64,000 bases of DNA. It comes from Bolinopsis microptera (Eukaryota; Ctenophora; Tentaculata; Lobata; Bolinopsidae). This document shows positions 234 through 63,952 of the stretch, piece after piece; the first letter of the stretch is position 1; each line of letters begins with the position of its first letter. The stretch lies in contig NC_087074.1 of assembly GCF_026151205.1 (NCBI RefSeq), positions 20,614,765-20,678,764 of the forward strand, in the 5' to 3' direction. The position numbers and the translations under genes are program-made. Under the pieces are notes generated by a model. The model was not told where the DNA came from. It saw nothing but the letters and a program-made list of their open reading frames with translations, and ran no database searches.

Positions 234-487
234 ACAACTACCCTATAGAATGTGAGACCTGCGCCAGACTAATTCAACGAGGGACCTGGTTCTATCGCCG
301 TCACTACAAATCCGTCCACCTCCGCCTTAAAGAGTTCACATGTCAGGATTGCAACAAAATGTTTGCTGAAAGTGGAACCCTGAAGCGACACAAGACAAGG
401 TGTCTTGCAATGATGAACAGGAAGACGCGCTCCTATGCTCATCTTACCCTGGATCCCAGGATCTTCCCTCCATCTGACGACTTCTGA
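234..487 (+). CDS. E1: two-finger terminal exon
   Basis: The acceptor CCATGTTTCAG ends at 233 and TGA is at 485-487, giving 83 complete codons. Finger 1 is C6, C9, H23, H28 (RRHYKSVH), followed by a seven-residue linker LRLKEFT. Finger 2 is C36, C39, H52, C56, a C2HC finger with helix AESGTLKRH. A 27-residue tail, basic and then proline-rich, follows. No ATG precedes the fingers. The nearest relative by eye is E2. First unit in the window; earlier units may lie upstream. Confidence 0.85.
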
Positions 488-1082
488 GACTCGTCTAATT
501 GAGTTATTTTGTAGACTGGGCTGTGTAACCCCGTTATCTTATTCTCAGTAGACTTTCCATCCCCACTCAGATAAAGAGATTCATGTAGTTCTTAGCAATT
601 TACTTTTTTATTTGAATTCGATTTTCTCCTTCAATTTTTACCGCCTGATCTTATTACTACTTTATTTTCTATCGCTTTCTTAACAGATATAAAAGTGTAA
701 CTCACAGTTAAACTGAATGGTATGCGGGAAATATTTTTGGCAACTAGACAAATTTCACCAGTAATGTCGTCAGTTCACATATTACGTAATCATTTTATGG
801 AACATTTTGACCCCCCCCCCCTCCGTAATCAGTTTTACACATAGCTATTGTGTCAAAATTACACTAGCGTAATCATTCGGAAACCCCCCCCCCCCTCAGC
901 TGATTACGTAATATATGTGAACGACCCCTTATGAACCAAAGGAGTGAAATTTCCGTAATATCATAATCATGATTACAAAATAAGTCGAGGATCAGATACC
1001 TTACATTCCATAAATGTTATCCTAGCCTGGCACCCTGTCAATTTTCCTATTGACACGTGGTCTTTAAGTCACGTGCTTTCAG
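488..1082. other. Intron/3' flank between E1 and E2
   Basis: AT-rich, with no finger-coding frame. It contains two C-homopolymer runs (near 811 and 885) inside the fold-back element listed separately. The last 40 bases lead into the E2 acceptor. Confidence 0.6.
765..928. mobile_element. Short fold-back element (MITE-like)
   Basis: GTTCACATATTACGTAATCA at 773-792 is matched as an inverted copy at about 901-922, with two extra bases in the right arm. The interior of about 110 bases holds two C-rich runs. No target-site duplication could be fixed. It has no coding capacity, so it is most likely a small non-autonomous DNA element. Confidence 0.5.
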
Positions 1083-1336
1083 GACAATCCCTAGTGTACA
1101 AGCGAGTGAGCGTGACCTACGAAGGCTGCAAAGTGTGTGACAGACTCAAAGATAAACGAGGTCAATGGAACCGCCACTTCAAGACCGTCCATCTGAAGAT
1201 CAAGAACTATCAGTGTCCGTTCTGTAACCGGAAGTTTGGTGAAAGTGCTACAGTTAAAAAACATATGCGAGTATGCAAAGAGAAACAGGAGAACGTTAAA
1301 TGGGAGGAGGAGGAAGGAGGAGCTTATAAGCCTTGA
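1083..1336 (+). CDS. E2: two-finger terminal exon
   Basis: Acceptor CGTGCTTTCAG ends at 1082; stop TGA is at 1334-1336; 83 codons. Finger 1 is C15, C18, H31, H36 (NRHFKTVH), with linker LKIKNYQ. Finger 2 is C44, C47, H60, C64 with helix GESATVKKH, close to E1. The tail is strongly acidic (WEEEEGG), unlike the basic tails of most units. An AATAAA lies 50 bases after the stop, consistent with a true last exon. Confidence 0.86.
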
Positions 1337-1385
1337 TCTGTAATACTTGTGTTTTAAAACCTTAAGTTATGTTCCAAAATTTATT

Positions 1386-1391
1386 AATAAA
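1386..1391 (+). promoter_or_regulatory. Candidate polyadenylation signal after E2
   Basis: AATAAA 50 bases downstream of the E2 stop and before the E3 acceptor, as expected for a 3' terminal exon. Confidence 0.5.
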
Positions 1392-1502
1392 ATTGCTCCA
1401 CGATTGGCCGTGCACGAGTGTGACTCGTTGCAATTAGGTATGCAAAATTCGTCGTACTCCTTACATTACACCAATTATTAGTCAGACACATCTACATTTC
1501 AG

Positions 1503-1720
1503 TGGACGATAAAGTAATTGTGTGTCCAGTGTGCCACAAAGAGTTTACGGGCAGGCGGGAGGGCAACTTCCGTAGACATATTAGAACGGTTCATCTCCGT
1601 ATAAAGGACTTTGCCTGTCGTTACTGTAACCGTCCGTTTACCCTGAAACACCACCGTATCCGTCATGAACAAACGTGTAAAGAAGCTGAGAAGCTTATTA
1701 AGCTAGGCCCTGAGTCATGA
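1503..1720 (+). CDS. E3: two-finger terminal exon, parent of a 52-bp satellite
   Basis: The acceptor ATCTACATTTCAG ends at 1502 and the stop is at 1718-1720, giving 71 codons. Finger 1 is C7, C10, H25, H30 (RRHIRTVH), with linker LRIKDFA. Finger 2 is C38, C41, H54, C58 with helix TLKHHRIRH. From the final H-C part of finger 2 onward the exon is itself the first copy of a 52-bp tandem repeat, and the stop codon lies in the first repeat unit. The C-terminal residues therefore belong to the repeat. Confidence 0.86.
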
Positions 1721-3222
1721 ACAAACGTGTAAAGAAGCTGAGAAGCTTATTAAACTAGGCCCTGAGTCATGAACAAACGTGTAAAGAAGCTGAGAAGCTT
1801 ATTAAGCTAGGCCCTGAGTCATGAACAAACGTGTAAAGAAGCTGAGAAGCTTATTAAACTAGGTCCTGAGTCATGAACAAACGTGTAAAGAAGCTGAGAA
1901 GCTTATTAAACTAGGCCCTGAGTCATGAACAAACGTGTAAAGAAGCTGAGAAGCTTATTAAGCTAGGCCCTGAGTCATGAACAAACGTGTAAAGAAGCTG
2001 AGAAGCTTATTAAACTAGGCCCTGAGTCATGAACAAACGTGTAAAGAAGCTGAGAAGCTTATTAAGCTAGGCCCTGAGTCATGAACAAACGTGTAAAGAA
2101 GCTGAGAAGCTTATTAAGCTAGGCCCTGAGTCATGAACAAACGTGTAAAGAAGCTGAGAAGCTTATTAGACTAGGCCCTGAGTCATGAACAAACGTGTAA
2201 AGAAACTGAGAAGCTTATTAAGCTAGGCCCTGAGTCATGAACAAACGTGTAAAGAAGCTGAGAAGCTTATTAGACTAGGTCCTGAGTCATGAACAAACGT
2301 GTAAAGAAGCTGAGAAGCTTATTAAACTAGGCCCTGAGTCATGAACAAACGTGTAAAGAAGCTGAGAAGCTTATTAAGCTAGGCCCTGAGTCATGAACAA
2401 ACGTGTAAAGAAGCTGAGAAGCTTATTAAGCTAGGCCCTGAGTCATGAACAAACGTGTAAAGAAGCTGAGAAGCTTATTAAACTAGGCCCTGAGTCATGA
2501 ACAAACGTGTAAAGAAACTGAGAAGCTTATTAAGCTAGGCCCTGAGTCATGAACAAACGTGTAAAGAAGCTGAGAAGCTCATTAAGCTAGGCCCTGAGTC
2601 ATGAACAAACGTGTAAAGAAGCTGAGAAGCTTATTAAGCTAGGCCCTGAGTCATGAACAAACGTGTAAAGAAGCTGAGAAGCTTATTAAACTAGGCCCTG
2701 AGTCATGAACAAACGTGTAAAGAAGCTGAGAAGCTTATTAAACTAGGCCCTGAGTCATGAACAAACGTGTAAAGAAGCTGAGAAGCTTATTAAGCTAGGC
2801 CCTGAGTCATGAACAAACGTGTAAAGAAGCTGAGAAGCTTATTAAACTAGGCCCTGAGTCATGAACAAACGTGTAAAGAAGCTGAGAAGCTTATTAAGCT
2901 AGGCCCTGAGTCATGAACAAACGTGTAAAGAAGCTGAGAAGCTTATTAAACTAGGTCCTGAGTCATGAACAAACGTGTAAAGAAGCTGAGAAGCTTATTA
3001 AACTAGGTCCTGAGTCATGAACAAACGTGTAAAGAAGCTGAGAAGCTTATTAAGCTAGGCCCTGAGTCATGAACAAACGTGTAAAGAAGCTGAGAAGCTT
3101 ATTAAACTAGGCCCTGAGTCATGAACAAACGTGTAAAGAAGCTGAGAAGCTTATTAAACTAGGTCCTGAGTCATGAACAAACGTGTAAAGAAGCTGAGAA
3201 GCTTATTAAACTAGGTCCTGAG
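1663..3222 (+). repeat. 52-bp minisatellite grown from the 3' coding end of E3
   Basis: About 30 copies of a 52-bp unit beginning TCATGAACAAACGTGTAAAG. Single-base variants recur in different combinations (GGCC/GGTC, AAGCTAG/AAACTAG), suggesting repeated unequal exchange or slippage. The first copy codes for the end of E3; the rest is untranslated if the E3 stop is used. Confidence 0.95.
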
Positions 3223-3304
3223 ATACTGTACCCTGAAACCTAGGTTTTGTCTGCTTGCTGCAGTCCACTGTTAGGCTGTACCTCACGTATGTTTAGTAAA
3301 CATT

Positions 3305-3348
3305 ACCTTATGTGGTAGTGTTGCCATGGTAGCACTACCATATAAGGT
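3305..3348. repeat. 44-bp hairpin, copy 1
   Basis: A near-perfect inverted repeat: ACCTTATGTGGTAGTG against CACTACCATATAAGGT around a short loop containing GCCATGG. A second copy lies at 3769-3812. Confidence 0.8.
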
Positions 3349-3768
3349 TTGGGATATATCTCACTTATGTTATTACCGGGAAAACTGTTGATTTTAATAG
3401 AATTATGGGATGAGTTTTAAATTATTGTTTCTGATATTAACGAAGTGTGGGGAGAGTGTGTTTCATATTAATTTCGTTGTATTTCATATAACATATTCAG
3501 ACTCCGTTGAGACGGTAGAACATATCTAAATCTGGCGTATGAACCGTTAAAAGACACTTAAACTTAATTATACTTATAATAGATGTAGACTGCCCGCTCC
3601 TCAATAATTCAATTTGCCGAAAAATATGAGCGAAACGCGGTGATTTCGGCATGAAATTGGTAATCATTACTGCGGTTGAAATGCAAAGTAACCGTTAAAT
3701 ATTTACAGACTAAATTAACAGTAATAACCCTCTTTGCCTACCAGTACCACTGAGTCCCTGTAAATGTT

Positions 3769-3812
3769 ACCCTATATGGTAGTGTTGCCATAGTAACACT
3801 ACCATATAAGGT
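3769..3812. repeat. 44-bp hairpin, copy 2
   Basis: Same fold as the 3305-3348 hairpin, with a few substitutions (stem TATGGTAGTGTT against AACACTACCATA). It ends 36 bases before the first base of E4. Confidence 0.8.
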
Positions 3813-3848
3813 CATGTTTTGAATAATACCGCTGAGTCTCTGTTTCAG

Positions 3849-4150
3849 TCTATGAGTTTGAAGCTGGCTACACTGTGACCATGAAGTGCCCTCTTTGCGA
3901 GATGAGGTTCTGTAGCAAGCGCAAGTCTCAGTATTACCGCCACTACAAGACTGTTCATCTGAAACTCAAAGAGTTCACCTGTGACTTCTGCTGCAAGAAG
4001 TTCAGTCGAGGAGAACACAAAAAAAGGCATATTCTGAGGAATTGCAAGCTGGCCAAACAGTTTATGGATGGCGTAGAAGGGGCACCGACCTCGGTGGAAA
4101 GCTCTGCCATGAATCTTACAAATTCTAATGATCTTTTTAGCCAGATCTAG
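3849..4150 (+). CDS. E4: two-finger terminal exon
   Basis: Acceptor GTCTCTGTTTCAG ends at 3848; TAG at 4148-4150; 99 codons. Finger 1 is C13, C16, H31, H36 (YRHYKTVH), linker LKLKEFT. Finger 2 is C44, C47, H60, C65 with helix SRGEHKKRH; the H to C spacing is four rather than the usual three. The tail of about 34 residues is Ser/Asn-rich. An internal ATG at residue 11 lies directly before finger 1, but starting there would leave no upstream domain. Confidence 0.85.
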
Positions 4151-4862
4151 TCGATTATAGGTAAAACTGATTTCTGTCGACGTATTTGTAAAAGTTTATG
4201 TAAGATAAACGTTTGGAACAAAAAGTAAGTTTTGGGTAATAAGAAATAAGGTGGCGCATGGTAAATGTACTAAATACGTTATAATTCCCGCATGAACTCG
4301 TTTAATCCAGTCTCGTTATTCCTCCTAGTTCTTTCTTTAAAGTCTTCTTCGAATGTATTCAAACCTAACGTTGTTAACAGAGCATTTTAGTAATATGTAA
4401 TTTTCTTAATATGATGTGTTTATTGCCGTTGTACGAGTACTATAAAGTTAGGAGTGTAACTCAGCTCCATTTAGGAGAGTTACTGATTGTTAGGTGATTA
4501 GATATTGTTTTCATCTACATTTTATACATTTTTGGTTACTTTAATCACATGACAATGATTATGATTCCAGTTAATTTTTGACAACCAGATCGCACTTTTC
4601 GTGTTCATGAATCTTTTTATGTCATCACATCTATGTTTTAATTCGTTAATATTTTTTTCTTAAAAGTTTTTATTCATCGTTAGTAACTGCTGAGTTTTCA
4701 TTGTAAATGAATTTTTGAAACGTCTCTCAACAATGAGATAAAATAAAAGAGCTTGCCAAATAATTAAAACTGAATTATAAAACCTATGCTTTCAACTTTC
4801 AGAATTCAATGCAATTTATCCCATGCAGATATAATATCATTATTTAAATCATACTTTGGCAG
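4151..4862. other. Intron between E4 and E5
   Basis: A plain AT-rich stretch of 712 bases. I see no repeat, finger relic or element in it. Confidence 0.6.
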
Positions 4863-5194
4863 ATATCAGGCGACCCAAACGACTACGAAACCTGGGAGAC
4901 ACTGAAATGGTTGCATTTGACTACGAGAGCGTTCTCCGTAGCCACAAGTTCACCCACAACATCAGGGAATCACTCCGGGGCCTGGGTATCGCCAAGGACC
5001 ACTTTTACCGGGGGAGACACATCGCAGAGCTCCGGCTCATCGACAGAGACGTGTTCGATGGGCTGCTGAGACGGGCCATGGCCAATAACTCAAGTCTCTA
5101 CGAGTTTGATCGGATCTGCAAGTTCAAGATGTTGGACAGTACTATGAAACTTAAGGCGGAAATATTGAAGAGAAGTGGGAAATTATTACCATGA
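4863..5194 (+). CDS. E5: terminal exon without zinc fingers, unknown domain
   Basis: The acceptor CATACTTTGGCAG ends at 4862, entry is phase 1, and TGA is at 5192-5194, giving 109 codons. The base composition is clearly coding, with GC higher than the flanks. There is no C2H2 pattern and only one Cys. The protein is basic and predicted helical. The central motif LGIAKDHFYRGRHIAEL has the look of a helix-turn-helix recognition segment (inference only). I do not recognise the family. Acceptor, phase and position make it an alternative 3' exon of the same gene with another, perhaps DNA- or protein-binding, end. Confidence 0.75.
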
Positions 5195-5580
5195 GAGTAA
5201 GGTTGTTAGTACCGAGATTATTTCAGCTAGATTACAGTAATTGCTTAATCGTGCAAATAGAAACCTGCTCGTAGACCCATGTCCCATAGCTCGCACCTGT
5301 ATAATTTAGCACTACAATTTAGCACTACTTTACTTGGGATAAGTACTTAATTGACCTTTATAAGGGCTACCGATCTGCATTATTATTATTCAACTTAATT
5401 GGCTCTCCTCCGGAAATTTGTGAAATTTACTAATAATCTTTCAAATTAATTCGCCGCTATCAATCTAAAATGTGCACATCTTTCCTCCTTTTTACTGAAA
5501 TTTATGTCTGTTAGTTCATAGCTATTGGCTACCTTTTTCTACCCGGGCCGGGTGATGCTGATGAATAATCCCTGTCCCAG
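5195..5580. other. Intron between E5 and E6
   Basis: No repeat or relic seen. The last 60 bases contain a GC-rich patch (CCCGGGCCGGG near 5541) unlike the surrounding AT-rich DNA. Confidence 0.55.
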
Positions 5581-5810
5581 TTCGCGGAAAAGATTTCCTT
5601 GTGTGCGGAAGCTGCGGCAAACAGTTCCGTGGATCCCGTCAGAGCTCCAACTTTAGAACCCACTACAAAGCGGTCCACCTCGGTCTGAAGGAGCACCCGT
5701 GTCGGCTGTGTGGCAAGAGGTTCTCTCAGATGAATAACCGTAGTCGCCACGAGAAGATTTGTGACAAGAACAAGCGTGTACTAGAGAGGGGCTGGGGGGA
5801 GCGTGGTTGA
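5581..5810 (+). CDS. E6: two-finger terminal exon
   Basis: Acceptor CCCTGTCCCAG ends at 5580; TGA at 5808-5810; 75 codons. Finger 1 is C8, C11, H27, H32 (RTHYKAVH), with GKQFRGSRQSSNF between C and H. Linker LGLKEHP. Finger 2 is C40, C43, H56, C60 with helix SQMNNRSRH. The tail ends ERGWGERG. It belongs to the G-K-x-F-x-G-P/S-R subfamily shared by E7 to E9, E11, E20 and E21. Confidence 0.86.
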
Positions 5811-6082
5811 GTCTGACTCTTCATCCGAGCATGTATTTTAATAACTGCTCAGTAAAGATCCTAGTGTTCGGTCGTTTCTGTGACTTCAGAGCCATACCCT
5901 CCGCATGATACAGTTTTACGGATTTTGTTTAACCTTGATTTTATTATTTTCATGTTATATATCACGTTAAATTATGCTAAAATATATTGCTTTGAAGATT
6001 AAGATCGAAAATTACATGAAATAAGCCATAATTGTGGAGCTTTTGAGTTCATTAAATCCATCAGAAATCCTGCAATTAACAG

Positions 6083-6278
6083 ACGTGACGTCACACCACG
6101 TGTAACGTGACGTCACACCACGTGTAACGTGACGTCACACCACGTGTAACGTGACGTCACACCACGTGTAACATGATGTCACACCACGTGTAACGTGACG
6201 TCACACCACGTGTAACATGATGTCACACCACGTGTAACGTGACGTCACACCACGTGTAACGTGACGTCACACCAGGTT
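6083..6278 (+). repeat. 22-bp minisatellite with CRE and E-box words, before E7
   Basis: About nine copies of ACGTGTAACGTGACGTCACACC. Each unit holds TGACGTCA (consensus CRE/ATF palindrome), and each junction CACGTG (E-box); some copies have the variant TGATGTCA. The array ends 1 to 3 bases before the E7 acceptor, so the E7 polypyrimidine tract is missing or replaced. Confidence 0.92.
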
Positions 6279-6281
6279 CAG

Positions 6282-6505
6282 ATGGCGGTATAAGGTGTGG
6301 TGTGTGCAGGAAGACCTTCCTGGGGCCCCACTCCCAGCCCCACTACCGACTCCACTACAACACAGTGCACCTAAAGATCAGGAAACACCAGTGTGCTGTG
6401 TGTGGCAAGCGGTTCTCACAGAATGGGAGTAAGAACAGACATCAGAAAAGTTGTGAGGCTAAACGGTCCGGTGTAACGTGTAACATGACGTCACACCACG
6501 TGTAA
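6282..6505 (+). CDS. E7: two-finger terminal exon with satellite-coded tail
   Basis: Acceptor CCAGGTTCAG ends at 6281; TAA at 6503-6505; 73 codons. Finger 1 is C5, C8, H24, H29 (RLHYNTVH), linker LKIRKHQ. Finger 2 is C37, C40, H53, C57 with helix SQNGSKNRH, nearly identical to E8. The last 12 codons (GVTCNMTSHHV) are read from the 22-bp satellite, which resumes inside the exon and supplies the stop codon. Confidence 0.84.
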
Positions 6506-6568
6506 CGTGACGTCACACCAGGTGTAACGTGACGTCACACCACGTGTAACGTGACGTCACACCAGGTT
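6468..6568 (+). repeat. 22-bp CRE/E-box minisatellite, continuation after E7
   Basis: Four to five further copies of the 6083-6278 unit, starting in the E7 coding end. They are followed by a repeat of the E7 acceptor and start (CCAGGTTCAGATGGC) joined to the AAACGGTCCGG coding tail. The exon has been partly copied along with the satellite. Confidence 0.85.
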
Positions 6569-6836
6569 CAGATGGCTAAACGGTCCGGTGCTCCTTTCTG
6601 GAACTTGAGTGGGGAGACGGGGGATGTTTAGAACTTCAGATTGTGGACTTCTTTAAAACCTTATAATATGTTGTGTCTGTGGTTTAAATATGGTTTTTAG
6701 CATGTGTGTTTGGTGTAAATATATCTAGTAATTATGGCCACTCCAGCGTAAACTACTAGGATGTAAACTATATACGATATTTTAAATATCATTTCATCTC
6801 CCTTGGAACATGCTCGGACTATGTGAACTGTTTCAG

Positions 6837-7156
6837 TAGTGTCTGAAGGGGGATGCGAATGTCCGGATTGCGGCAGGAAGTTTAAAGGACCTCGCAGCGG
6901 GGAGATGTGCCGGACCCACTACGAAACAGTACATCTCAAGTTGCGCAGACACAGATGCGGCATTTGTGGCAAGGGTTTCTCTCAGAACGGGAGCATGAAC
7001 AGACATCAGAAAAGTTGTGAAGCACCGGAACTTCTTCTCAGTGAGAGTGGAGGTTATGTGTGTAGGTACTGCAGTGAACATTACAAGAGTAAGGGAGCCG
7101 CCAGGAAGCATGTTAAGAGCTGTTATAGGAGAGTATTTGAAAATAAGCAGTTATGA
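6837..7156 (+). CDS. E8: three-finger terminal exon
   Basis: Acceptor GAACTGTTTCAG ends at 6836; TGA at 7154-7156; 105 codons. Finger 1 starts C8, C11 and ends HYETVH. Finger 2 has helix SQNGSMNRHQ and a terminal Cys. A 16-residue spacer leads to finger 3 (about residues 75-95: CRYC, then HVKSC). The third finger, again C2HC, is an extension not present in E7. The downstream 40 bases share a word with E10 (see findings). Confidence 0.86.
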
Positions 7157-7357
7157 GGAGTTGACATACCACGTGATGCCCATATTAGCAGTTATGAGTA
7201 GGAGTTGTTCTGAGTGTTTGAGATGGTCCAGAAACATATTGAGTGGACGGTCCCATAATACAGTTTGGCGTTTTGATTTATCGAAGTAAATTGTTTTTCT
7301 AGTTTACCTTTTTATGTTGGTGCCATTTACAAAATCTTTTCTATTCAATACTCTTCA

Positions 7358-7494
7358 AGTATTTCTAGTGAATATCTATAATATTTCTAGTGAATATCTA
7401 TAATATTTCTAGTGGATATCTATAATATTTCTAGTGAATATCTATAATATTTCTAGTGAATATCTATAATATTTCTAGTGAATATCTATAATAT
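7358..7494 (+). repeat. 22-bp minisatellite between E8 and E9
   Basis: About six copies of TATTTCTAGTGAATATCTAT plus AA. The first copies are identical apart from one G/A change. It is not derived from an exon as far as I can see. Confidence 0.9.
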
Positions 7495-7744
7495 TATAGG
7501 ATTTTTATTGTACTATATCATCTTAACCCGTTAGAGCAACCATTGCATTACCAATATAACAAGACATTCACTGTGACAAAAATTTTATACAAAAAAATAA
7601 AGAAGAAATACGTAAATATGATTGACGCTGTCATGATGACACCACTATTCCTGTTCCTAAGCTATTCCTAAGTTCTAATCTGTTCCTAAGCTATTGTTCC
7701 TATGTTCCGAAGCCATTGTTCCTAAGCTATTATCCTAGTTTCAG

Positions 7745-7980
7745 ATGGGGTAGAGTGTTCGGTGTGTCGGAGAGGATTCCTAGGCCCGTACGCTATGCCT
7801 CACTTCGTCCTCCACTACCGGACGGTTCACCTGAAAATCAAGAAGTACCCTTGCGCTTTGTGCGGCATCCGCTTCTCTCGTATCACCAACCGGAACCGTC
7901 ACCAGAAAACCTGCCAGAATAAACAGTACTACCGTTACTTGGACCCCAACACTGGACATTTGATAAACCTGCCAGAATAA
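7745..7980 (+). CDS. E9: two-finger terminal exon
   Basis: Acceptor ATCCTAGTTTCAG ends at 7744; TAA at 7978-7980; 77 codons. Finger 1 is C5, C8 to HYRTVH, linker LKIKKYP. Finger 2 has CALC, helix SRITNRNRH and a terminal C. The last 18 codons overlap a direct repeat of about 30 bp (AACCTGCCAGAATAAACAGT at about 7907 and again at 7966); the second copy provides the TAA used here. Confidence 0.85.
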
Positions 7981-8513
7981 ACAGTACTACCGTTACTTGG
8001 ACAGCACGTGATACAGTCTGTTGTGATATTGTTTGACGAATTTTGTATTATGTACGAGATCTGTGTGGAGGAGTATTGTAATTCATACTGACTGGTTACC
8101 ATGGTTACTAAATGAGAGATATGTAATTTTTGCTTTAGAGACTGTGAGATACGGGTGTAATGTTTTAAACAAGCTGAATATTCAGACTATGTGACCTTGT
8201 GTACTACTAAATAGAGTGTGTTGTATTCCGGCGTGTGACTGTTAATGGAGTTGAGCTAATTTCATATCATACAGAATAGAGATTGCATAGTGAATGTCTG
8301 ATCATATATTAGTAACAGGCCGTAAATTAGGATCTAGCACCACAACCAACTAAAAGTCAATATTAGGCTGCCAACCAGGGACAAAAGGAATTCGCGGCAT
8401 GTACGGAATCGCGATTTTTCCCATTATTTGCGACAAATTTTATGTATAGTTTAATGTATAGTCTGTTAAAAATCGCGGTATCGCCAACCAGTGTCCTAAA
8501 TCAGTGATTTCAG
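7981..8513. other. Intron between E9 and E10
   Basis: Apart from the residual repeat copy at its start, I see no structured sequence. A word CAGTGATTTCAGGCATTTCAG at its end offers two AGs near the E10 start; only the first one gives phase 1. Confidence 0.5.
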
Positions 8514-8836
8514 GCATTTCAGAGCTATTCCAGCTGACTTACCGGCCAAACAGCGAGTTTTACAAACACGTGATAAACTGTGAGTTCTGTGATCGCCAGT
8601 TTTACCACGAGGGCGGCTACAGGTGCCACCTGACAAAGGTTCACGACAAGAGAACCTGGCCTGTAGGTTGTCCATCTCCTGCAAACATACCACGTGATGC
8701 CCATATTAGGAGTTATAACTCCAGACCGCCCTCCAAACGGATCATGACGTGTCAGTATTGTAACAAGGAGTTCACAAGTACGAGGAGTAAGTCTGGACAT
8801 GAGTGGAGATGTGCCCGTATATTTCACCCTGACTGA
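8514..8836 (+). CDS. E10: two separated fingers, parent of the 34-bp satellite
   Basis: Acceptor CAGTGATTTCAG ends at 8513; stop TGA at 8834-8836; 106 codons. One finger (CEFCDRQF to HLTKVH, about residues 22-43) is followed by a spacer of about 37 residues rich in Pro, Arg and Ser, then a C2HC finger (CQYCNKEF to HEWRC). The expected second finger directly after HLTKVH has been lost or replaced by the spacer, which contains a word shared with the E8 flank. The final HEWRCARIFHPD is the first unit of a 34-bp array. Confidence 0.83.
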
Positions 8837-12897: not shown

Positions 12898-12910
12898 GAC
12901 GTCGTTGGTT

Positions 12911-55413: not shown

Positions 55414-55545
55414 GTTACTAGAACTGGTTACTAGGTTACTAGAACTGGTTACTAGGTTACTAGAACTGGTTACTAGGTTACTAGAACTGGTTACTAGGTT
55501 ACTAGAACTGGTTACTAGGTTACTAGAACTGGTTACTAGGTTACT
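55411..55545 (+). repeat. 21-bp satellite at the E50 stop
   Basis: About six copies of TAGGTTACTAGAACTGGTTAC, beginning exactly with the TAG stop. Confidence 0.93.
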
Positions 55546-55660
55546 ATGTGTGACTTGTGGGAGAACGTTTACTCAGATGATTGTTTACTTGATGAAGGAG
55601 CACGCTCAGATAAGGGATATGAAGGAGCACGCTAAGCGGATTCATCACCGTGCTTCCTGA
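55546..55660 (+). pseudogene. Duplicate of the second finger of E50
   Basis: TGTGACTTGTGGGAGAACGT onward repeats E50 finger 2, then GATATGAAGGAGCACGCTAA and a later stop (HRAS). It has an internal rearranged duplication of GAAGGAGCACGCT. As at E34 and E21, the satellite is bracketed by two copies of the exon end. Confidence 0.8.
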
Positions 55661-56003
55661 TTCTGGATTGTTTATTTGAAATTCTTTAGATGAAGGGGAT
55701 GTACTGCATTTATTGGATTTATTTAGTGATTGTATGAGTATATTTAACTTACGATTTTATTAATTATGAAATGGTGGCATCCTTTTTCGTTATATTCGAA
55801 TACAAAGCCAGAAAATTTAATACAGAACTAATTATTAAATATTTGTGTTTTTGTTATTAATGATGTTAAATTTATTTTCCAAATAACGACCTTAATTTCA
55901 ACACTTTACATTTATTTTAAATGAGAGATTTTTTATTTGAAAGTCAAAAACGCTCACCCAGGTTACATTAAAAAAATTGAATTATAAAAAAACGGTATTA
56001 CAG

Positions 56004-56212
56004 GTTACGAATACATCTGCCATTTCTGCAACAAGCAGTTCAGCAAGAGAGCCACCCTGACACGACACGTGACCACCATACATTTCCAAGTGAAGCCATT
56101 CCAGTGTCACATGTGCAAACGGTCCTTTTCACAGAAAACATGTCTGAAGATCCACCTGGAGAGCGCCGAGAAGAGGGGATCGTGTTTTATTAAAAATCAG
56201 TTTCGGAAGTGA
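56004..56212 (+). CDS. E51: two-finger terminal exon
   Basis: Acceptor CGGTATTACAG ends at 56003; TGA at 56210-56212; 68 codons. Finger 1 starts at residue 5: CHFCNKQFSKRATLTRH then VTTIH, linker FQVKPFQ. Finger 2: CHMCKRSFSQKTCLKIH then LESAEKRGSC, where the second His is replaced by a distant Cys in a fixed S-x-x-R-G-x-C motif. This motif marks E51 to E57. The stop overlaps GTGAAA repeats. Confidence 0.87.
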
Positions 56213-56440
56213 AAGTGAAAGTGAAAGGCTTTATGTGAAGTAAATGTTTCGTGTTATCAGCTATTTTATTTAGACGACTGTATGTGTCTTTTATTAACAG
56301 ACCATTTAAAAGTAACTTTAATGGACACTTATCTAATTATTTTAATAATTTACTGCAAAGCTCCCTGAAAAACTGTTCATGTAATTCGTATACTCGTGGA
56401 AAGTTATGACTATCAAATCTCAATTAATTGTATCAACCAG

Positions 56441-56673
56441 GACTCATCTGCTATGTCTGCAAACAAGAGTTCTCGCAGAAAGGAAACCTTAACCGACATA
56501 TCAGAACAATCCATCATCAGATCAAAAAGTTTCAATGTGACAGATGCAAGCGAACGTTTTCGCAGAAAACCTGCCTTAAAATCCATTTGGAGAGTGCAGA
56601 AAAACGGGGATCATGCTATCCTGGTTGGATTGGTAATGCTTACGAAACTAGTGGAAATAACAAACAATTGTGA
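56441..56673 (+). CDS. E52: two-finger terminal exon
   Basis: Acceptor TGTATCAACCAG ends at 56440; TGA at 56671-56673; 76 codons. Finger 1 starts at residue 3: CYVCKQEFSQKGNLNRH then IRTIH, linker HQIKKFQ. Finger 2: CDRCKRTFSQKTCLKIH then LESAEKRGSC, nearly the same as E51. Tail of 15 residues. The finger 1 helix Q-K-G-N-L-N-R matches the QGNLxR type that in other proteins reads GAA. Confidence 0.88.
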
Positions 56674-56877
56674 CATTAGCGAACTGCATTTAACCAGTGT
56701 ACTTTATGCTGTATTTTCATGACACTGTCAAATATTCACAGCATCACTTATAATGATGTATAAATTCTAGCATTTGTAACACGCTTAATCCATTCAAGCG
56801 AGACTTATTTAATGCACTATTATATCAGTTCACAATTTATGGACAACTGTTGGTTATTGAAGTCGAAAATTAAGCTA

Positions 56878-57115
56878 CCTTACTCGGGAATATTATAGCG
56901 GGTTAATTTATGACTGGGAAAATTAATGACCGGGAAAAATATGGCGGAATGTTCCAAAACCCACCAAGCATCAAAATGTATTACTATTAGTTTACCTTAC
57001 TCGGGAATCTTATAGCGGGTTAATTTATGACTGGGAAAATCAATGACCGGGAAAAATATGGCGGAAATATCCAAAACCCACCACGTTATCCCAGTCATAA
57101 TATTCCCGAGTAAGG
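56878..57115. mobile_element. MITE with TA target duplication (Tc1/mariner-like)
   Basis: Starts CCTTACTCGGGAATATTAT (from 56878) and ends with its complement (to 57115), flanked by TA on both sides. The left arm with GCGGGTTAATTTATGACTGG is present twice (56878 and about 56995), so the element carries an internal duplication or two copies sharing one right end. Confidence 0.7.
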
Positions 57116-57339
57116 TAGATAAAGTCACCTTTATTATCGCCCAAGCAACCAATGTTTTTTAGTATATTTACTTTTAATAATCTGCACTAGTCTGGCAAAT
57201 TAAAATAACAATGCGGTGATGTTTGTTGACTATATATTATTTTATGTAATTTTAACAATAAATATTTCTTATTTTTATCTATATCCAATCGCCCAGATTT
57301 TATTTGTAAACACTGTCATCACACGTTCAATTAGATGTT

Positions 57340-58062
57340 CAGCCTAGACATCCACATTTCAACTATTCAGACTAGACAGCCACATTTCAACTATTCAGAC
57401 TAGACAGCCACATTTCAACTAATCAGCCTAGACAGCCACATTTCAACTATTCAGACTAGACAGCCACATTTCAACTAATCAGCCTAGACAGCCACATTTC
57501 AACTATTCAGCCTAGACAGCCACATTTCAACTATTCAGACTAAACAACCACATTTCAACTATTCAGACTAGACAGCCACATTTCAACTATTCAGCCTAGA
57601 CATCCAAATTTCAACTATTCAGACTAGACAGCCACATTTCAACTATTCTGGTACACAGCCACATTTCAACTATTCTGGTACACAGCCACATTTCAACTAT
57701 TCTGGTACACAGCCACATTTCAACTATTCTGGTACACAGCCACATTTCAACTATTCTGGTACACAGCCACATTTCAACTATACTGGTACACAGCCACATT
57801 TCAACTATACTGGTAGGTACACAGCCACATTTCAACTATTCTGGTACACAGCCACATTTCAACTAGTCTGGTACACAGCCACATTTCAACTAGTCTGGTA
57901 CACAGTCACATTTCAACTAGTCTGGTACACAGCCACATTTCAACTATTCTGGTACACAGCCACATTTCAACTAGTCTGGTACACAGCCACATTTCAACTA
58001 GTCTGGTACACAGCCACATTTCAACTATTCTGGTACACAGTCACATTTCAACTATTTATTTC
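57340..58062 (+). repeat. 27- to 28-bp CAGCCACATTTCAACTATT satellite
   Basis: About 26 copies. The left part has ...CAGACTAGACAGCC (28 bp), the right part ...CTGGTACACAGCC (27 bp), so two successive expansions. On the minus strand part of it is open by chance. Confidence 0.93.
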
Positions 58063-58184
58063 GGAATACGGGTCTGATTTTAGTAATATTTTCATTTCTA
58101 TTTGTGATGGTGATAACAAGTGATACGATAACGTACTAACAGTAGTAAATTGTAAAAGAAGTGGACGGTTACGATGTTTCATAT

Positions 58185-58268
58185 CACGTGGTGCGCTTTC
58201 GTGTCACGTGGTATAGACTCGGCGTATGCTATTGGTGGCACGTGGTACGCACGTGACGCGCCCACGTG
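58185..58268. promoter_or_regulatory. Cluster of five E-box palindromes in a CpG-rich patch
   Basis: CACGTG at 58185, 58205, 58239, 58250 and 58263 within 84 bases, with many CG dinucleotides (GACGCGCCCACGTGATCGCGCG) in otherwise AT-rich DNA. It could be a regulatory element bound by bHLH factors, an internal promoter or an insulator; function is inference. Confidence 0.5.
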
Positions 58269-58777
58269 ATCGCGCGTCTAACTGTTCTACTATTATCGAG
58301 TTCTAATCAGCAGTATCATTGATTATTGTAAGTCGGAGAATTGAATGATAAACATCAGTTACGACTAAAAAGCGGGCCGGGTTTATACAAATTTCCGGGG
58401 CGGGATGATATCACCTTGAGATGTTTATCTAACAGCGGGCCGGGCTGAGTGATAATATGATCCCGCGTCGAAATCCCGGAGATATTTATAGTAGTGTAAC
58501 CATGGTAACTAGTAGTAACAAGTAGTAACCGAGTGTTGGAACTGTAAACTTGCTGCCACTTAGCAAAAAATGCGTACTATTACTCGGCTTAGAGTGTTGC
58601 TTATCAAATGTAAAAGAATTAAGAAATGCTGACGAGCCATTAAGGTTATGTTCAGTATAAAAATTACCGTTTTGATCGGTTCTTATTAAAAAAGTTAAAA
58701 CATAGTCATAGTCAGTCCACTAAGAAGATGAATGACATTAAATAATTAAATGTACTTACACAAACTTAATAACCCAG

Positions 58778-58983
58778 GTCATGTTTGCCTGCGCTGCAAC
58801 CAAAAGTTCAGTCACCGAGGAAATCTGAGACGGCACATTTCTACGATTCACCACCAAGTGAAGCCATTCCAATGTGTCACGTGTCAGCGAAGCTTTTCTC
58901 AGAAACAAGCTCTCAACATTCACCTGAAAAATTCCGAACGAAGGGGCTGGTGTTTCATTCCGGATTCTTACCGTGACTTTTAA
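58778..58983 (+). CDS. E53: two-finger terminal exon
   Basis: Acceptor TTAATAACCCAG ends at 58777; TAA at 58981-58983; 67 codons. Finger 1: CLRCNQKFSHRGNLRRH then ISTIH, linker HQVKPFQ. Finger 2: CVTCQRSFSQKQALNIH then LKNSERRGWC. Same subfamily as E51 and E52. Confidence 0.88.
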
Positions 58984-59324
58984 ACAGATTGGAATTTGTT
59001 ACGACAAAAACGTTTCGTATGAAAAGCAGATTTGAGTAGTGTTTGGCAACGTAAATTATTGAAAACAAGGCATACTTATCTGATTCAATTTCATCAAATT
59101 TGAGAAATTTGACTAAAATGTTAATTTGTTAATCAAGTGTTGGCTAAAAAGAGCGAAGTTATTAGTACACTATATGCTTGGTGTAGCTTGTTGGGATAGT
59201 ATAGGAATTCTGGTTCCTATAGTTGGGAATGAGGTAGTTGTCTGTTCACAGATCGCCCTCTAAAACTTACAAGGAAATATTTCCTGTAGATCCTTGGTAT
59301 ATAAGCAACATTTGACAGAGCATT

Positions 59325-59470
59325 GTGTGGAGTGAGCTATGTGCCTATCCTTGGAGAAACCGGCGAATGTCCTTGCTGTACGGCAGTGTTAAACAAGGAA
59401 CTGAAACCGAGGGGTTCCGTTCAGGCCCTTCACACTTTGTTTCTGTCTAGTTCTAATGTACCGTCACAAT
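59325..59470 (+). repeat. Dispersed repeat, copy 2
   Basis: Contains GTGTGGAGTGAGCTATGTGC, GTCCTTGCTGTACGGCAG and GTTAAACAAGGAACTGAAAC in the same order as the minus strand of 23.7-23.9 kb. Confidence 0.6.
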
Positions 59471-59621
59471 AGTGACTTAAATGTATGATGAACGGGACTG
59501 AATTTTATCAGATGGTGCCAAATTATTCAACAAAAATAGGAATGACACTATCGGTTGCTTTAAGTTTAAAGTCCAGTTATAAACTACTAAAAAGTTTCCA
59601 ACTGTTAATTCCACCACCTAG

Positions 59622-60055
59622 GTGTCGAAGTCGAGCTCATTTGTCAGCACTGCGAAAAAAAGTTCTCCCAAAAGGGAAACCTAAAGCGACACGTAATAAC
59701 AGTAGTGTAACCATGGTAACTAGTAGTAACTAGTAGTAACAGAGGACAGCTCTACAACAGCACAATAACAGTAGTGTAACCATGGTAACTAGTAGTAACT
59801 AGTAGTAACCGATGTGAGCGCTGCTTTACCCAGAGGACAGCTCTACAACAGCACAATAACAGTAGTGTAACCATGGTAACTAGTAGTAACTAGTAGTAAC
59901 AGAGGACAGCTCTACAACAGCACATCTCTAACGTTCACCACAACATCAAGCCTTTCCAGTGTACGCGGTGCAAGCAGTGGTTTTCTAGGAAGACCGGCCT
60001 GAAGTCTCATTTGGAACGATTTGATAGAGCTGGATCTTGCTATATTAGAAATTAG
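59622..60055 (+). pseudogene. E54: exon cut apart by satellite insertions
   Basis: Acceptor CCACCACCTAG ends at 59621; phase 1 reads CQHCEKKFSQKGNLKRH then VITVV and stops. Three blocks with GTAACCATGGTAACTAGTAG interrupt the rest. One isolated fragment is CERCFTQRTALQQHN. The last part is complete: QRTALQQHISNVHHNIK, then CTRCKQWFSRKTGLKSH and LERFDRAGSC, ending at TAG 60053-60055. As it stands it codes for one finger only. Confidence 0.8.
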
Positions 60056-60278
60056 TACATGTAATTTGATTAGAATATGAGATGATTATTATATAATGGG
60101 ATATGTGATTATATTTTAAACATTCTTAACGGCGATTTTAAACCATGATATGCTGTTCTCAATATTGGTCTTTTATGTACGGTGATAGGCGAATTTTATA
60201 AGCCCGTTAAATTTATCAGCACAAAGAAACACTCTTCCACTACTCCTTACGCAAAAAAACATTTAGCCGAGGAACTAG

Positions 60279-61138
60279 TAGTGTAACTATGGTAACTAGT
60301 AGTGTAACTATGGTAACTAGTAATGTAACTATGGTAACTAGTAGTGTAACTATGGTAACTAGTAGTGTAACCATGGTAACTAGTAGTGTAACTATGGTAA
60401 CTAGTAGTGTAACTATGGTAACTAGAAGTGTAACTATGGTAACTAGAAGTGTAACTATGGTAACTAGTTGTGTAACTATGGTAACTAGTTGTGTAACTAT
60501 GGTAACTAGTAGTGTAACTATGGTAACTAGTAGTGTAACTATGGTAACTAGTAGTGTAACTATGGTAACTAGTAGTGTAACTATGGTAACTAGTAGTGTA
60601 ACTATGGTAACTAGAAGTGTAACTATGGTAACTAGTTGTGTAACTATGGTAACTAGTAGTGTAACTATGGTAACTAGTAGTGTAACTATGGTAACTAGTA
60701 GTGTAACTATGGTAACTAGTTGTGTAACTATGGTAACTAGTAGTGTAACTATGGTAACTAGTTGTGTAACTATGGTAACTAGTTGTGTAACTATGGTAAC
60801 TAGTTGTGTAACTATGGTAACTAGTAGTGTAACTATGGTAACTAGTAGTGTAACTATGGTAGCTAGTAGTGTAACTATGGTAGCTAGTAGTGTAATTATG
60901 GTAACTAGTAGTGTAACTATGGTAACTAGTAGTGTACCTATGGTAACTAGTAGTGTAACTATGGTAACTAGTAGTGTAACTATGGTAACTAGTAGTGTAA
61001 CTATGGTAACTAGTAGTGTAACTATGGCAACTAGTAGTGTAACTATGGTAACTAGTAGTGTAACTATGGTAACTAGTAGTGTAACTATGGTAACTAGTAG
61101 TGTAACTATGGTAACTAGTAGTGTAACTATGGTAACTC
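60279..61138 (+). repeat. 21-bp GTAACTATGGTAACTAGTAGT satellite before E55
   Basis: About 41 copies with sparse variants (AGAAGT, AGTTGT, GTAGCTAG). The period is a multiple of three and lacks stops in two phases, so long repetitive frames exist on both strands. It ends 4 bases before the first base of E55. Confidence 0.95.
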
Positions 61139-61142
61139 GCAG

Positions 61143-61342
61143 GTATCTGCCGTTTTTGCAACAAGAGTTTCAGCCGGGGATGGAACATGAACCAACACAT
61201 CTCAACCATCCACCACAAGGTCAAACGGTTCCTGTGTCACAGGTGCGGGCGGAACTTTACTCGCAAGAATAGTCTGACTAACCACCTGAAGAGGTCCCTG
61301 CAGGACGGGAAATGTTTCGCTAGAAATGATTCGCATCGTTAA
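61143..61342 (+). CDS. E55: two-finger terminal exon without a normal pyrimidine tract
   Basis: Acceptor GGTAACTCGCAG ends at 61142; TAA at 61340-61342; 65 codons in phase 1. Finger 1 starts at residue 2: CRFCNKSFSRGWNMNQH then ISTIH, linker HKVKRFL. Finger 2: CHRCGRNFTRKNSLTNH then LKRSLQDGKC. The satellite reaches the acceptor, so splicing here must work without a pyrimidine run or has failed. Confidence 0.8.
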
Positions 61343-61786
61343 GTGTTTAGATTTTAGTCAAGACAAATTAAAGCAAATTAATGGCAAATGAAGCATTTAA
61401 TTTTGTCTGACGGTTAATTGGATAAATTCAATCTTTTAATTTATTGTCAAGACAAAACTGTGGTTAGTTAAATCGATGTTTAAATATTTCGATTGGGTTC
61501 GCAGACTTTTATTCTGTTCACCCTTTATTTTAAAACTGAGAGGGGTTTTAATTCAATTTAAATTTTGACTATAATATAAAATTAATGGTGCGACTTGTAT
61601 CACAGTATTAACTATTACTTTAATTTTAGATCTCTATTCTGCTACATTCATGTTAAAATGTCGTAATAATTTACGACATTTCGTGACTACTATACAGTAC
61701 AACATGCATAGCATCAACTGTCGCTGGCGCAACTTGAGTCACTAGTTGCACACATTCAATTTTAAATGCTTAAAATCTGATAATTA
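61343..61786. other. Intron downstream of E55
   Basis: AT-rich; no repeats seen. Confidence 0.45.
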
Positions 61787-62029
61787 TTGGAGCAGTTCAA
61801 TAATTGCATCCGAGATCACAGTCTTGTGCACATATCTGAGAGTCGTCAAACACAAAGATTTTGCAACAAAGGAGATTTCAATGACCACATAATATTTTCT
61901 TTTTATCATAGAGTATCAGTAATAACCCCTAAACATACCACATGTGACGGCGATCGTCTTGTAGAAAAAATTGCCAGATTCAATTATATCGGGCTGAGAA
62001 GAAAGGGCCATCTCTCATTAGACATTTGA
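61787..62029 (+). pseudogene. Possible decayed exon
   Basis: An 80-codon frame contains RFCNKGDFNDHI and a late RRKGHLSLDI, faintly like the CNKxFSxKGNLNxHI pattern of the neighbours. No acceptor in phase and no complete finger. It may be chance. Confidence 0.25.
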
Positions 62030-62104
62030 ATAGCAAAATATTTGAATAGATTATGCTAGCTTACAAAACAAAACCCTGGAGCAGATTAGAGGGCTGAGGT
62101 GCTA

Positions 62105-62516
62105 CGGAATTGTAACCTAGTAACCAGCCAGTAACCTAGTAACCAGCCAGTAACCTAGTAACTACGGAATTGTAACCTAGTAACCAGCCAGTAACCTAGT
62201 AACCAGCCAGTAACCTAGTAACTACGGAATTGTAACCTAGTAACCAGCCAGTAACCTAGTAACCAGCCAGTAACCTAGTAACTACGGAATTGTAACCTAG
62301 TAACCAGCCAGTAACCTAGTAACCAGCCAGTAACCTAGTAACTACGGAATTGTAACCTAGTAACCAGCCAGTAACCTAGTAACCAGCCAGTAACCTAGTA
62401 ACTACGGAATTGTAACCTAGTAACCAGCCAGTAACCTAGTAACCAGCCAGTAACCTAGTAACTACGGAATTGTAACCTAGTAACCAGCCAGTAACCTAGT
62501 AACCAGCCAGTAGGTG
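62105..62516 (+). repeat. 60-bp satellite of near-identical units
   Basis: About seven copies, practically without differences, of a unit made of TAACCTAGTAACCAGCCAG (x2) and TAACCTAGTAACTACGGAATTG. It is itself built from a shorter 19-bp repeat. Flanked on both sides by TAGAGGGCTGAGGTGCTACG. Confidence 0.95.
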
Positions 62517-63031
62517 CTACATTAGAGGGCTGAGGTGCTACGGAATTGTTTGTTGGCGTATAAATACTTACTCTAGGTTGGTTTGGCAGGGATTGCTTCT
62601 GGACAACAGTAAGTAGTACGTCCTCCATTCATTCCTGGTTCAGATCTTTCTGTAGATTCCATTCCAAGAGTGAGTTGTTGGTGATGGCGGTGTATCCTTT
62701 GGTTGGCGGGGTACCGGGTATCGGGAAACGTCTCCTTAGAGGGCTGAGGTGCTACGGAATTGTTTGTTGGCGTATAAATGCTGGCCCTTTCTACACAACA
62801 ACTTTAATTATGAGACATGATGATACGCTTTGAGTCGAACTCAATTTATGTATTGACTGGCAATGTAAAATGCTTTCCGGCCTTTTATATGATAATAAAT
62901 TTGACAATTTTTCGTTCCAAATTTCTAATGAAAGTTCTGCATATAAATTTCCGAATCAATCTTTCGAAATTCATACGTGGTATCTGACAAAAAATTTAAT
63001 TTTTACTTGCAAAATATCATCACGACTCCAG
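62517..63031. other. Intron before E56
   Basis: A direct repeat of about 43 bases (TTAGAGGGCTGAGGTGCTAC to GTTTGTTGGCGTATAAAT) occurs at about 62521 and 62736; a first part is at 62086. The E56 frame is open upstream of its acceptor by chance. Confidence 0.55.
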
Positions 63032-63222
63032 GTATTTGCTGTTATTGCAACAAAAGATTTAGCACAAAAGGGAATCTGAACAAACATGTTGCTTCCATCC
63101 ACCTCAACGTAAAGCCTTTCAAGTGTCATGGATGTCAGCAGAGATTTTCTCAAAGAGTTCACCTCAAAGTTCACATAGAACGGGCTCAGCGGAACGGGGC
63201 GTGCTTCATAAAATATTCATAG
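63032..63222 (+). CDS. E56: two-finger terminal exon
   Basis: Acceptor TCACGACTCCAG ends at 63031; TAG at 63220-63222; 62 codons. Finger 1 starts at residue 2: CCYCNKRFSTKGNLNKH then VASIH, linker LNVKPFK. Finger 2: CHGCQQRFSQRVHLKVH then IERAQRNGAC. No room for any domain other than the fingers. Confidence 0.87.
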
Positions 63223-63758
63223 AAATATCTTTGAACACGACGCTAAAAACACTACTGTTCAGAATCAGAGTAATGTCATTAATTTTGTTTAGTTTGTTTG
63301 ATATTGAATGCAATTGAAGTTATGCTCTGCTAAATGGTGGTTTTTGATGAGTTCTGAACGTCGTTGTTAGATTAATCTGGTTTTAGATGGAATAAGATTG
63401 GAATATGCATAAGATTAGGAATTTCCGATTTAATTCTGAAATATCCATTCTTAATAATTTCTTAATGAATATTTAAGACAAGATCAAATGTTGACTTTCA
63501 AAATTGCTAAGTTATTGGAAATAAATGATTCACTTTGTTTTCGGTGCTGCACCAAATTGAATGTATGTTTTTATCTATATTTTTGGTATGACATGGCCTT
63601 ATGGTACAATAATATAAAGGTGTTTAATTTGTATATTTCAAAATTTAACAATGACAAAAACTTACTGATAATTAATTAGTGATCTTTAAGGATATGTTTT
63701 TTAAAGTAACAAGAAATTTTTGCAATTTCAAATACATAATATAATTACTTCTTCTCAG
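63223..63758. other. Intron between E56 and E57
   Basis: AT-rich, no structure recognised; ends in ATTACTTCTTCTCAG. Confidence 0.5.
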
Positions 63759-63952
63759 ATATCACTACTTGTCGGTATTGCAACAAGAGGTTCAGTCACA
63801 GAGGAAATTTGAACCAACATGTGGCGACAATCCACCACAAGGTCAAGCCCTTCCAGTGTAACTGGTGCCATCAGAGGTTCTCACAGAGGATTACCCTCAG
63901 GATACACATGGAAAGGTCTGAGAAGAACGGGAGCTGCTACATCAAGAAGTGA
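63759..63952 (+). CDS. E57: two-finger terminal exon
   Basis: Acceptor TACTTCTTCTCAG ends at 63758; TGA at 63950-63952; 63 codons. Finger 1: CRYCNKRFSHRGNLNQH then VATIH, linker HKVKPFQ. Finger 2: CNWCHQRFSQRITLRIH then MERSEKNGSC. The array may well continue past the window. Confidence 0.88.

What the first reader, a model, noticed from the sequence alone, without database searches (positions are those of the whole stretch)
234..63952. More than 50 alternative 3' zinc-finger exons in one array
51 phase-1 finger exons plus one non-finger exon (E5) lie head-to-tail, each with its own acceptor and stop. This exceeds the roughly 20 to 30 variable exons of insect lola and mod(mdg4) as I know them. 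If all are spliced to one set of constant exons, a single gene would make a large family of transcription factors with different DNA-binding ends.
Basis: partly seen in the sequence, partly recalled or inferred. Interest (0 to 1): 0.95.

Follow-up and report, generated by a model that had tools for sequence, protein, structure and literature searches.

The report
Comb-jelly gene with ~110 alternative endings
A comb jelly gene appears to join one shared beginning to any of about 110 different DNA-binding endings, several times more than the comparable insect genes, so a single gene could make a very large set of different gene regulators.

Summary
The window lies in the ctenophore Bolinopsis microptera, gene LOC134813369. 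It holds 52 open finger exons, 47 with two complete fingers, all on +. The array runs on outside: 112 open finger exons from -34.9 to +91.5 kb, 102 two-finger. Four constant coding exons lie at -41.7 to -38.9 kb (373 aa, ending in phase 1) and match RefSeq proteins of the gene at 100% (33 member sequences in four clusters). The four representatives end in four different array exons up to 120 kb apart; two short contigs of related animals end in two exons of this window; all six joins fit phase 1. Alternative 3' terminal exons of one gene are well supported; use of all ~110 is not shown. The shared part is not BTB: it is a short region without a Pfam match. E5 is a CCDC106-like, perhaps helix-turn-helix, ending. 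A second array with about 90 finger places lies on C10. It works like insect lola and mod(mdg4) but has an unrelated constant part. My paper searches found no description of it.

The parts
1..64000 (+). middle part of the array. Outside the window (C3 position = window coordinate + 20614764): constant exon 1 at -41737..-41581, exon 2 at -40570..-40454, exon 3 at -40090..-39304, exon 4 at -38954..-38896 (donor phase 1); upstream array part -34812..-361 with 47 open finger exons (RefSeq endings at -29213, -27745, -3898); downstream array part 64321..91548 with 13 (RefSeq ending 91334-91548, reached through an extra exon at about 91020-91124)
234..487 (+). two-finger 3' exon
1083..1336 (+). two-finger 3' exon
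1503..1720 (+). two-finger 3' exon
3849..4150 (+). two-finger 3' exon; orthologue joined to the constant part in P0005 (95% identical ending)
4863..5194 (+). E5: CCDC106-like, perhaps helix-turn-helix, 3' exon
5581..5810 (+). two-finger 3' exon
6276..6505 (+). two-finger 3' exon
6837..7156 (+). two-finger 3' exon plus a third finger
7745..7980 (+). two-finger 3' exon
8505..8836 (+). finger 3' exon, wide linker
10845..11188 (+). two-finger 3' exon plus a third finger
11826..12205 (+). one-finger 3' exon, acceptor uncertain
12611..12897 (+). one-finger 3' exon, acceptor uncertain
13733..14025 (+). finger 3' exon, wide linker
14327..14580 (+). two-finger 3' exon
14852..15171 (+). two-finger 3' exon plus a third finger
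15414..15754 (+). two-finger 3' exon plus a third finger
16207..16487 (+). two-finger 3' exon
16929..17137 (+). two-finger 3' exon
17598..17809 (+). two-finger 3' exon
18657..18862 (+). two-finger 3' exon
19718..19941 (+). two-finger 3' exon
20170..20387 (+). two-finger 3' exon
21018..21223 (+). two-finger 3' exon
21590..21771 (+). two-finger 3' exon
22609..22796 (+). two-finger 3' exon
24519..24742 (+). damaged exon: in-frame stop between the fingers
25014..25219 (+). two-finger 3' exon
25540..25766 (+). two-finger 3' exon
26295..26503 (+). two-finger 3' exon
26715..26923 (+). two-finger 3' exon
27358..27566 (+). two-finger 3' exon
27842..29119 (+). damaged exon invaded by a 43-base tandem repeat
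29498..29703 (+). two-finger 3' exon
30801..31048 (+). two-finger 3' exon; orthologue joined to the constant part in P0008 (77% identical ending)
31720..32033 (+). two-finger 3' exon
32452..32657 (+). two-finger 3' exon
32912..33150 (+). two-finger 3' exon
34243..34481 (+). two-finger 3' exon
34929..35168 (+). damaged exon: first finger lost
35399..35709 (+). two-finger 3' exon plus a third finger
36225..36448 (+). two-finger 3' exon
38072..38384 (+). finger exon whose good acceptor is in phase 0 (off phase)
39167..39351 (+). finger 3' exon, second finger irregular
39625..39809 (+). two-finger 3' exon
42131..42354 (+). two-finger 3' exon
42715..42920 (+). two-finger 3' exon
43381..43613 (+). 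two-finger 3' exon
44808..45043 (+). two-finger 3' exon
54974..55413 (+). two-finger 3' exon, acceptor uncertain
56004..56212 (+). two-finger 3' exon (last finger with a long H-to-C spacing)
56441..56673 (+). two-finger 3' exon, same type
58778..58983 (+). two-finger 3' exon, same type
61143..61342 (+). two-finger 3' exon, same type
63032..63222 (+). two-finger 3' exon, same type
63759..63952 (+). two-finger 3' exon, same type

Best explanation
One gene with four constant coding exons and about 110 mutually exclusive 3' terminal exons. Constant exon 4 ends in phase 1 and is spliced to one variable exon, which brings a pair of C2H2-type fingers (or, for E5, a perhaps helix-turn-helix domain) and its own stop. 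The product is a shared N-terminal part plus one of many DNA-binding ends. Shown: the constant exons, their phase, the array, and joins of the constant part to six different endings in database proteins. Inferred: that most other exons are used, that the choice differs between cells, that the endings bind different DNA, and that the N-terminal region joins subunits as BTB does in lola.
For: Constant exons predicted from sequence match RefSeq LOC134813369 proteins at 100% identity and coverage. Four RefSeq representatives end in exons at -29213, -27745, -3898 and 91334; P0005 and P0008 (other animals; contigs of 1,496 and 1,653 bases, far shorter than the tens of kb between the parts in this genome) end in orthologues of exons 3849 and 30801. 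The first residue after the join fits phase 1 in all six. 112 open finger exons on one strand; no two-finger frame on the other. Best acceptor phase 1 in 90 of 112 against 21 of 77 controls. 29 of 112 open segments have an in-frame Met before the first finger. Tandem repeats avoid predicted acceptors (3 of 111; mean 29.7, lowest 15 in 500 circular shifts) and exon middles (2; mean 30.0). Adjacent exons are more alike (mean identity 0.452) than exons overall (0.344), as tandem duplication predicts.
Against: RefSeq isoforms may be computed models; I read only the 4 cluster representatives, so how many exons the 33 member sequences cover is unknown. AATAAA/ATTAAA within 400 nt of the stop: 40 of 112, against 33% of random pieces, so no sign of a poly(A) signal per exon. 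In 22 of 112 exons the best acceptor is not phase 1, and my scoring missed the P0003 acceptor by 18 nt. Stops are not clearly avoided by repeats (18 of 111; mean 30.2, lowest 10). Seven exons are damaged or partial and one is off phase. No expression data were seen.
Confidence: 0.88

Rival explanations
1. Same protein logic, but by trans-splicing: the constant exons and groups of variable exons are transcribed separately and joined between molecules, as reported for lola and mod(mdg4).
For: The farthest variable acceptor is 130,229 nt from the constant donor. Ctenophores use spliced-leader trans-splicing: a leader on 56% of Iso-Seq reads in Hormiphora (PMC8527503, section 37).
Against: All 112 exons lie on the strand of the constant exons and downstream of them, so ordinary cis-splicing suffices; nothing seen here requires trans-splicing.
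Confidence: 0.15
2. Only a subset of the exons (perhaps the 30 or so in RefSeq) is used; the rest are old duplicates on the way to decay.
For: 33 member sequences against 112 exons; seven damaged or partial copies; some acceptors are weak.
Against: 102 of the 112 open exons keep two complete fingers, tandem repeats avoid them, and the most similar pair of 103 cores is only 88% identical, so most are old and yet intact.
Confidence: 0.3
3. A cluster of separate small zinc-finger genes, each capped by the spliced leader.
For: Gene clusters that share only a short 5' leader exon are described in Hormiphora (PMC8527503, section 37).
Against: 83 of 112 open segments have no in-frame Met before the first finger; the acceptors favour phase 1; six joins to the coding constant part are seen.
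Confidence: 0.03
4. The blocks are joined into one polyfinger protein.
For: 35 of 112 exons contain a GTRAG inside the frame, 42 sites in all.
Against: 23 of the 42 sites lie in a Cys codon (TGT), where coding explains them; the blocks keep stops; the six endings seen are single blocks, apart from one small extra exon in P0004.
Confidence: 0.03

Closest known systems
lola (longitudinals lacking), Drosophila
   Same: One constant 5' part, many alternative 3' ends, 17 of 20 isoforms with different C2H2 fingers (passage in PMC11426971).
   Different: 20 isoforms against 112 open finger exons; constant part is BTB there and an unrelated region here; different phylum; lola is trans-spliced (same passage).
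mod(mdg4), Drosophila
   Same: At least 30 isoforms with different ends (passage in PMC11426971).
   Different: Ends are mostly FLYWCH, constant part is BTB, trans-spliced (same passage); here C2H2 plus a CCDC106-like end, all on one strand.
LOC134821797 (Bolinopsis) and ACHWQZ_G001731 (Mnemiopsis)
   Same: Same N-terminal region and a two-finger end.
   Different: Paralogues, 30-31% identical to P0001 overall; the Bolinopsis one starts at C10:11.558 Mb.
CTEP1 and CTEP2 (Mnemiopsis loop-anchor proteins)
   Same: Ctenophore-specific C2H2 proteins (PMC12221973, passages).
   Different: Their sequences are not in the passages that I read, so any kinship is untested.

Membership tests
Genes with an array of alternative 3' terminal exons | Constant exon upstream whose donor phase fits the variable exons | tested here: met
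   Exon 4 donor phase 1; phase-1 AG in 111 of 112
Genes with an array of alternative 3' terminal exons | Transcripts or protein models with the same 5' part and different array exons | tested here: met
   Six different endings
Genes with an array of alternative 3' terminal exons | Own poly(A) signal for each variable exon | tested here: inconclusive
   40 of 112 with AATAAA/ATTAAA within 400 nt; 33% of random pieces
lola/mod(mdg4) (BTB family) | N-terminal BTB domain in the constant part | tested here: not met
   No BTB in P0001 or P0005; the N-terminal region has no Pfam match at E up to 10
lola/mod(mdg4) (BTB family) | Joining by trans-splicing | not testable with these tools
   Needs allele-specific cDNA
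C2H2 zinc-finger proteins | Match to a curated C2H2 model | tested here: met
   PF00096 42.1 bits, cut-off 25.2, in P0001. Of the endings only some pass: P0005 and P0008 stay under the cut-offs. The fixed Cys and His are required by the pattern and are no independent test.
CCDC106 (PF15794), for E5 | Score over the curated cut-off | tested here: inconclusive
   E5 30.0 bits, cut-off 30.2; of two C10 relatives tested, 35.7 and 20.9 bits

The most novel reading that the evidence does not exclude
Two paralogous loci, on C3 and C10, together offer about 200 alternative DNA-binding ends behind one ctenophore-specific N-terminal region, chosen by cell type and combined through that region, so that ctenophores built much of their regulator diversity by splicing, independently of insect lola.
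Probability: 0.3. Interest if true: 0.93.

Novelty: new variant of a known kind. Interest (0 to 1): 0.86.

Why it matters
If most of these exons are used, this is several times larger than the insect arrays cited here (20 isoforms for lola, at least 30 for mod(mdg4)), in an animal group far from insects and with an unrelated constant part. That would be independent invention of the same way of making many regulators from one gene. It also raises a testable question: how one of about 110 endings is chosen over up to 130 kb. RefSeq already lists the gene as uncharacterized, with isoforms. In the listings of seven searches of an open-access library I saw no paper on such an array in ctenophores; subscription papers are mostly not in that library.

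Tried and rejected
BTB constant exon: rejected. The nearest BTB match to the gene on C3 is at 20.41 Mb on the other strand, about 160 kb upstream of exon 1 (only 150 of 309 candidates were scored).

Pairing of shared repeats as the way of choosing an exon: TAGTTACC and GGTAACTA are about 20-fold denser in the array than in its flanks, but one or more of four motifs of this kind occurs in only 35 of 107 gaps longer than 100 nt, and the two are absent from 16.4 kb read from the C10 locus. Not supported.

Poly(A) signals: uninformative. Structure of the N-terminal region: low confidence (mean pLDDT 46.8, pTM 0.20; block means 71-80 for residues 11-50, 64 for 51-60, 50 for 61-70), so no fold search was run. 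The structure of E5 and the search for SIX domains in the genome did not run.

A third protein search, meant to find more constant-variable joins, gave 5 hits; three end in ...SMM, like exon 3 read through its donor, and none of the five has a finger ending.
Full report
What it is. The window is C3:20614765-20678764 of a 264.65-Mb assembly. A protein search names the gene: uncharacterized LOC134813369 of Bolinopsis microptera, a comb jelly. All coordinates below are window coordinates; negative ones lie upstream of the window.

The array. One search showed finger pairs all along the + strand. Fetching 100 kb on each side showed that the array continues on both sides. In one search I listed the + strand open segments with a finger motif between about -39.0 and +92.5 kb: 131. 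After looking at them I removed by hand 6 low-complexity, 2 chance and 11 broken or partial segments (the 11 belong to 7 exons); 112 remain, 102 of them with two complete fingers by a fixed pattern; 52 lie in the window, 47 upstream, 13 downstream. The same pattern finds 47 frames on the window's + strand, none on its - strand, none in 20 random sequences of the same dinucleotide make-up and none in the flanks.

The constant part. About 4 kb before the first finger exon lie four coding exons, 1,120 nt, 373 codons and one base over, so the last donor is in phase 1: exon 1 -41737..-41581, exon 2 -40570..-40454, exon 3 -40090..-39304, exon 4 -38954..-38896. I joined them on sequence alone; the protein then matched RefSeq isoforms X15, X8, X5 and X6 of LOC134813369 at 100% over its whole length. 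These four represent clusters with 27, 1, 4 and 1 member sequences, each on one contig of 21,284,423 bases, the length of C3.

The joins. The four RefSeq representatives end in four different array exons, at -29213, -3898, -27745 and 91334. Three acceptors are those that my scoring had chosen; the fourth (P0003) lies 18 nt from my choice. P0004 reaches the last exon through an extra small exon at about 91020-91124. Two further proteins come from contigs of 1,496 and 1,653 bases of other animals. P0005 (95% identical in the constant part) ends in the orthologue of exon 3849-4150; P0008 (81% identical over 51% of the constant query) ends in the orthologue of exon 30801-31048. Since the parts lie tens of kb apart in this genome, these contigs are most simply transcripts. 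In all six the first residue after the join fits an A left over from exon 4, that is phase 1. The shared part is thus joined to endings from near one end of the array to the other.

Phase and starts. A phase-1 AG lies before the first finger in 111 of 112 exons. The best-scoring acceptor of any phase is phase 1 in 90 of 112 (12 phase 0, 10 phase 2); where all three phases offer an AG it is 28 of 45; finger-free control segments give 21 of 77. 29 of 112 open segments have an in-frame Met before the first finger, 16 of 112 after the predicted acceptor. So most blocks could not be read from a start of their own through both fingers. Against this reading, or not helping it: 99 of 112 phase-1 acceptors score 2.5 or more but only 66 score 5 or more, and poly(A) signals after the stops are not enriched (40 of 112; 33% of random pieces).

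Upkeep and origin. Tandem repeats fill 35.8 of 134 kb of the gene region but cover only 3 of 111 predicted acceptors and 2 exon middles, against means of 29.7 and 30.0 when the repeats are shifted round the region 500 times; stops are covered in 18 cases (mean 30.2, lowest 10), so they are not clearly avoided. Among 103 aligned finger cores, adjacent exons are 45% identical on average, all pairs 34%, the most similar pair 88%. I read this as an old array grown by tandem duplication and kept by selection; a silent-site test was not made.

The N-terminal region. Residues 17-64 are strongly conserved in P0009, P0018, P0023, P0024, P0025 and P0026. It has no Pfam match at E up to 10. A low-confidence model shows two helices, 15-27 and 35-66. 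Of the named hits, those in which I saw this region are of Bolinopsis or Mnemiopsis; three arthropod hits (12% coverage) carry zinc-finger domains, and I did not look at which part aligned. Each search scored only about 8,000 candidates, so restriction to ctenophores is likely, not proved. P0024 joins this region to a SIX-type homeodomain. The region may be what joins subunits, as BTB does in lola; this is a guess.

E5. The block at 4863-5194 has no fingers. It resembles CCDC106 (30.0 bits, just under the cut-off of 30.2). Six related blocks lie in the C10 locus. Of two that I scanned, one passes the CCDC106 cut-off (35.7 bits) and one does not (20.9 bits); both have weak helix-turn-helix matches, under the cut-offs. 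So it is a second kind of ending.

A family of such genes. The start exon has eight matches in the genome, seven with E below 0.001. The one at C10:10849072 (-) is followed on the same strand by about 90 finger places between 10.747 and 10.839 Mb: 94 when the hits within 160 nt of each other are merged. This is rough: each search scored 150 candidates and one search was cut, which lowers the number, while two fingers of one exon may count twice. The six E5-like blocks lie among and before them, and exons 2 and 3 have the same make-up as in the window's gene. I could read only part of that locus; no isoform of it was seen.

Known relatives. mod(mdg4) makes at least 30 isoforms and lola 20, 17 of them with different C2H2 ends (passage in PMC11426971). 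The likeness is in the way of working; the constant parts are unrelated, so I do not file this gene as a lola or BTB gene. A Nature paper of 2025 describes ctenophore-specific C2H2 loop-anchor proteins CTEP1 and CTEP2 (passages only); whether they belong to this family I could not test. Spliced-leader trans-splicing is common in a ctenophore (PMC8527503, passages and section 37), which keeps a trans-splicing route open.

Verdict. A real and very large array of alternative 3' DNA-binding exons of one ctenophore gene. The gene structure and six joins are shown; wide use, regulated choice and function are inferred.

Noticed in passing
-41586..-40570 (upstream of the window): Both splice sites of the first constant intron sit in tandem repeats: four copies of the exon 1 donor about 50 bases apart, and ten copies of the exon 2 acceptor with the first bases of the exon, about 62 bases apart.
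   Followed up: partly
1662-3222, 8800-10610, 17752-18239 and others: Long minisatellites begin inside the 3' ends of finger exons; in the whole gene 18 of 111 stops lie in a tandem array against 3 of 111 acceptors.
   Followed up: partly
-34812..91548: TAGTTACC/GGTAACTA-type repeats are about 20 times denser in the array than in its flanks.
   Followed up: partly
99608-102355 (-) and 129898-134059 (+), downstream of the window: Two pairs of nearly identical open frames in mirror order downstream of the array suggest an inverted duplication.
   Followed up: no
G000:C7:13884033-13885950 (+): Four finger exons with the same scores and frame lengths as four in the C10 array (10797919-10799807): a copy on another chromosome, with no start-exon match on C7.
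   Followed up: no
-52963..-47543 (upstream of the window): Retrotransposon-like frames with a PHD-like finger and a reverse transcriptase (recalled likeness) just upstream of the constant exons; frames of the same kind lie downstream at 102977-117154.
   Followed up: no
P0024 (474 aa): The same N-terminal region joined to a SIX-type homeodomain, so the region is not tied to zinc fingers.
   Followed up: partly
-66999..-62000 (upstream of the window): A 5,000-base gap of N in the assembly upstream of the gene.
   Followed up: no
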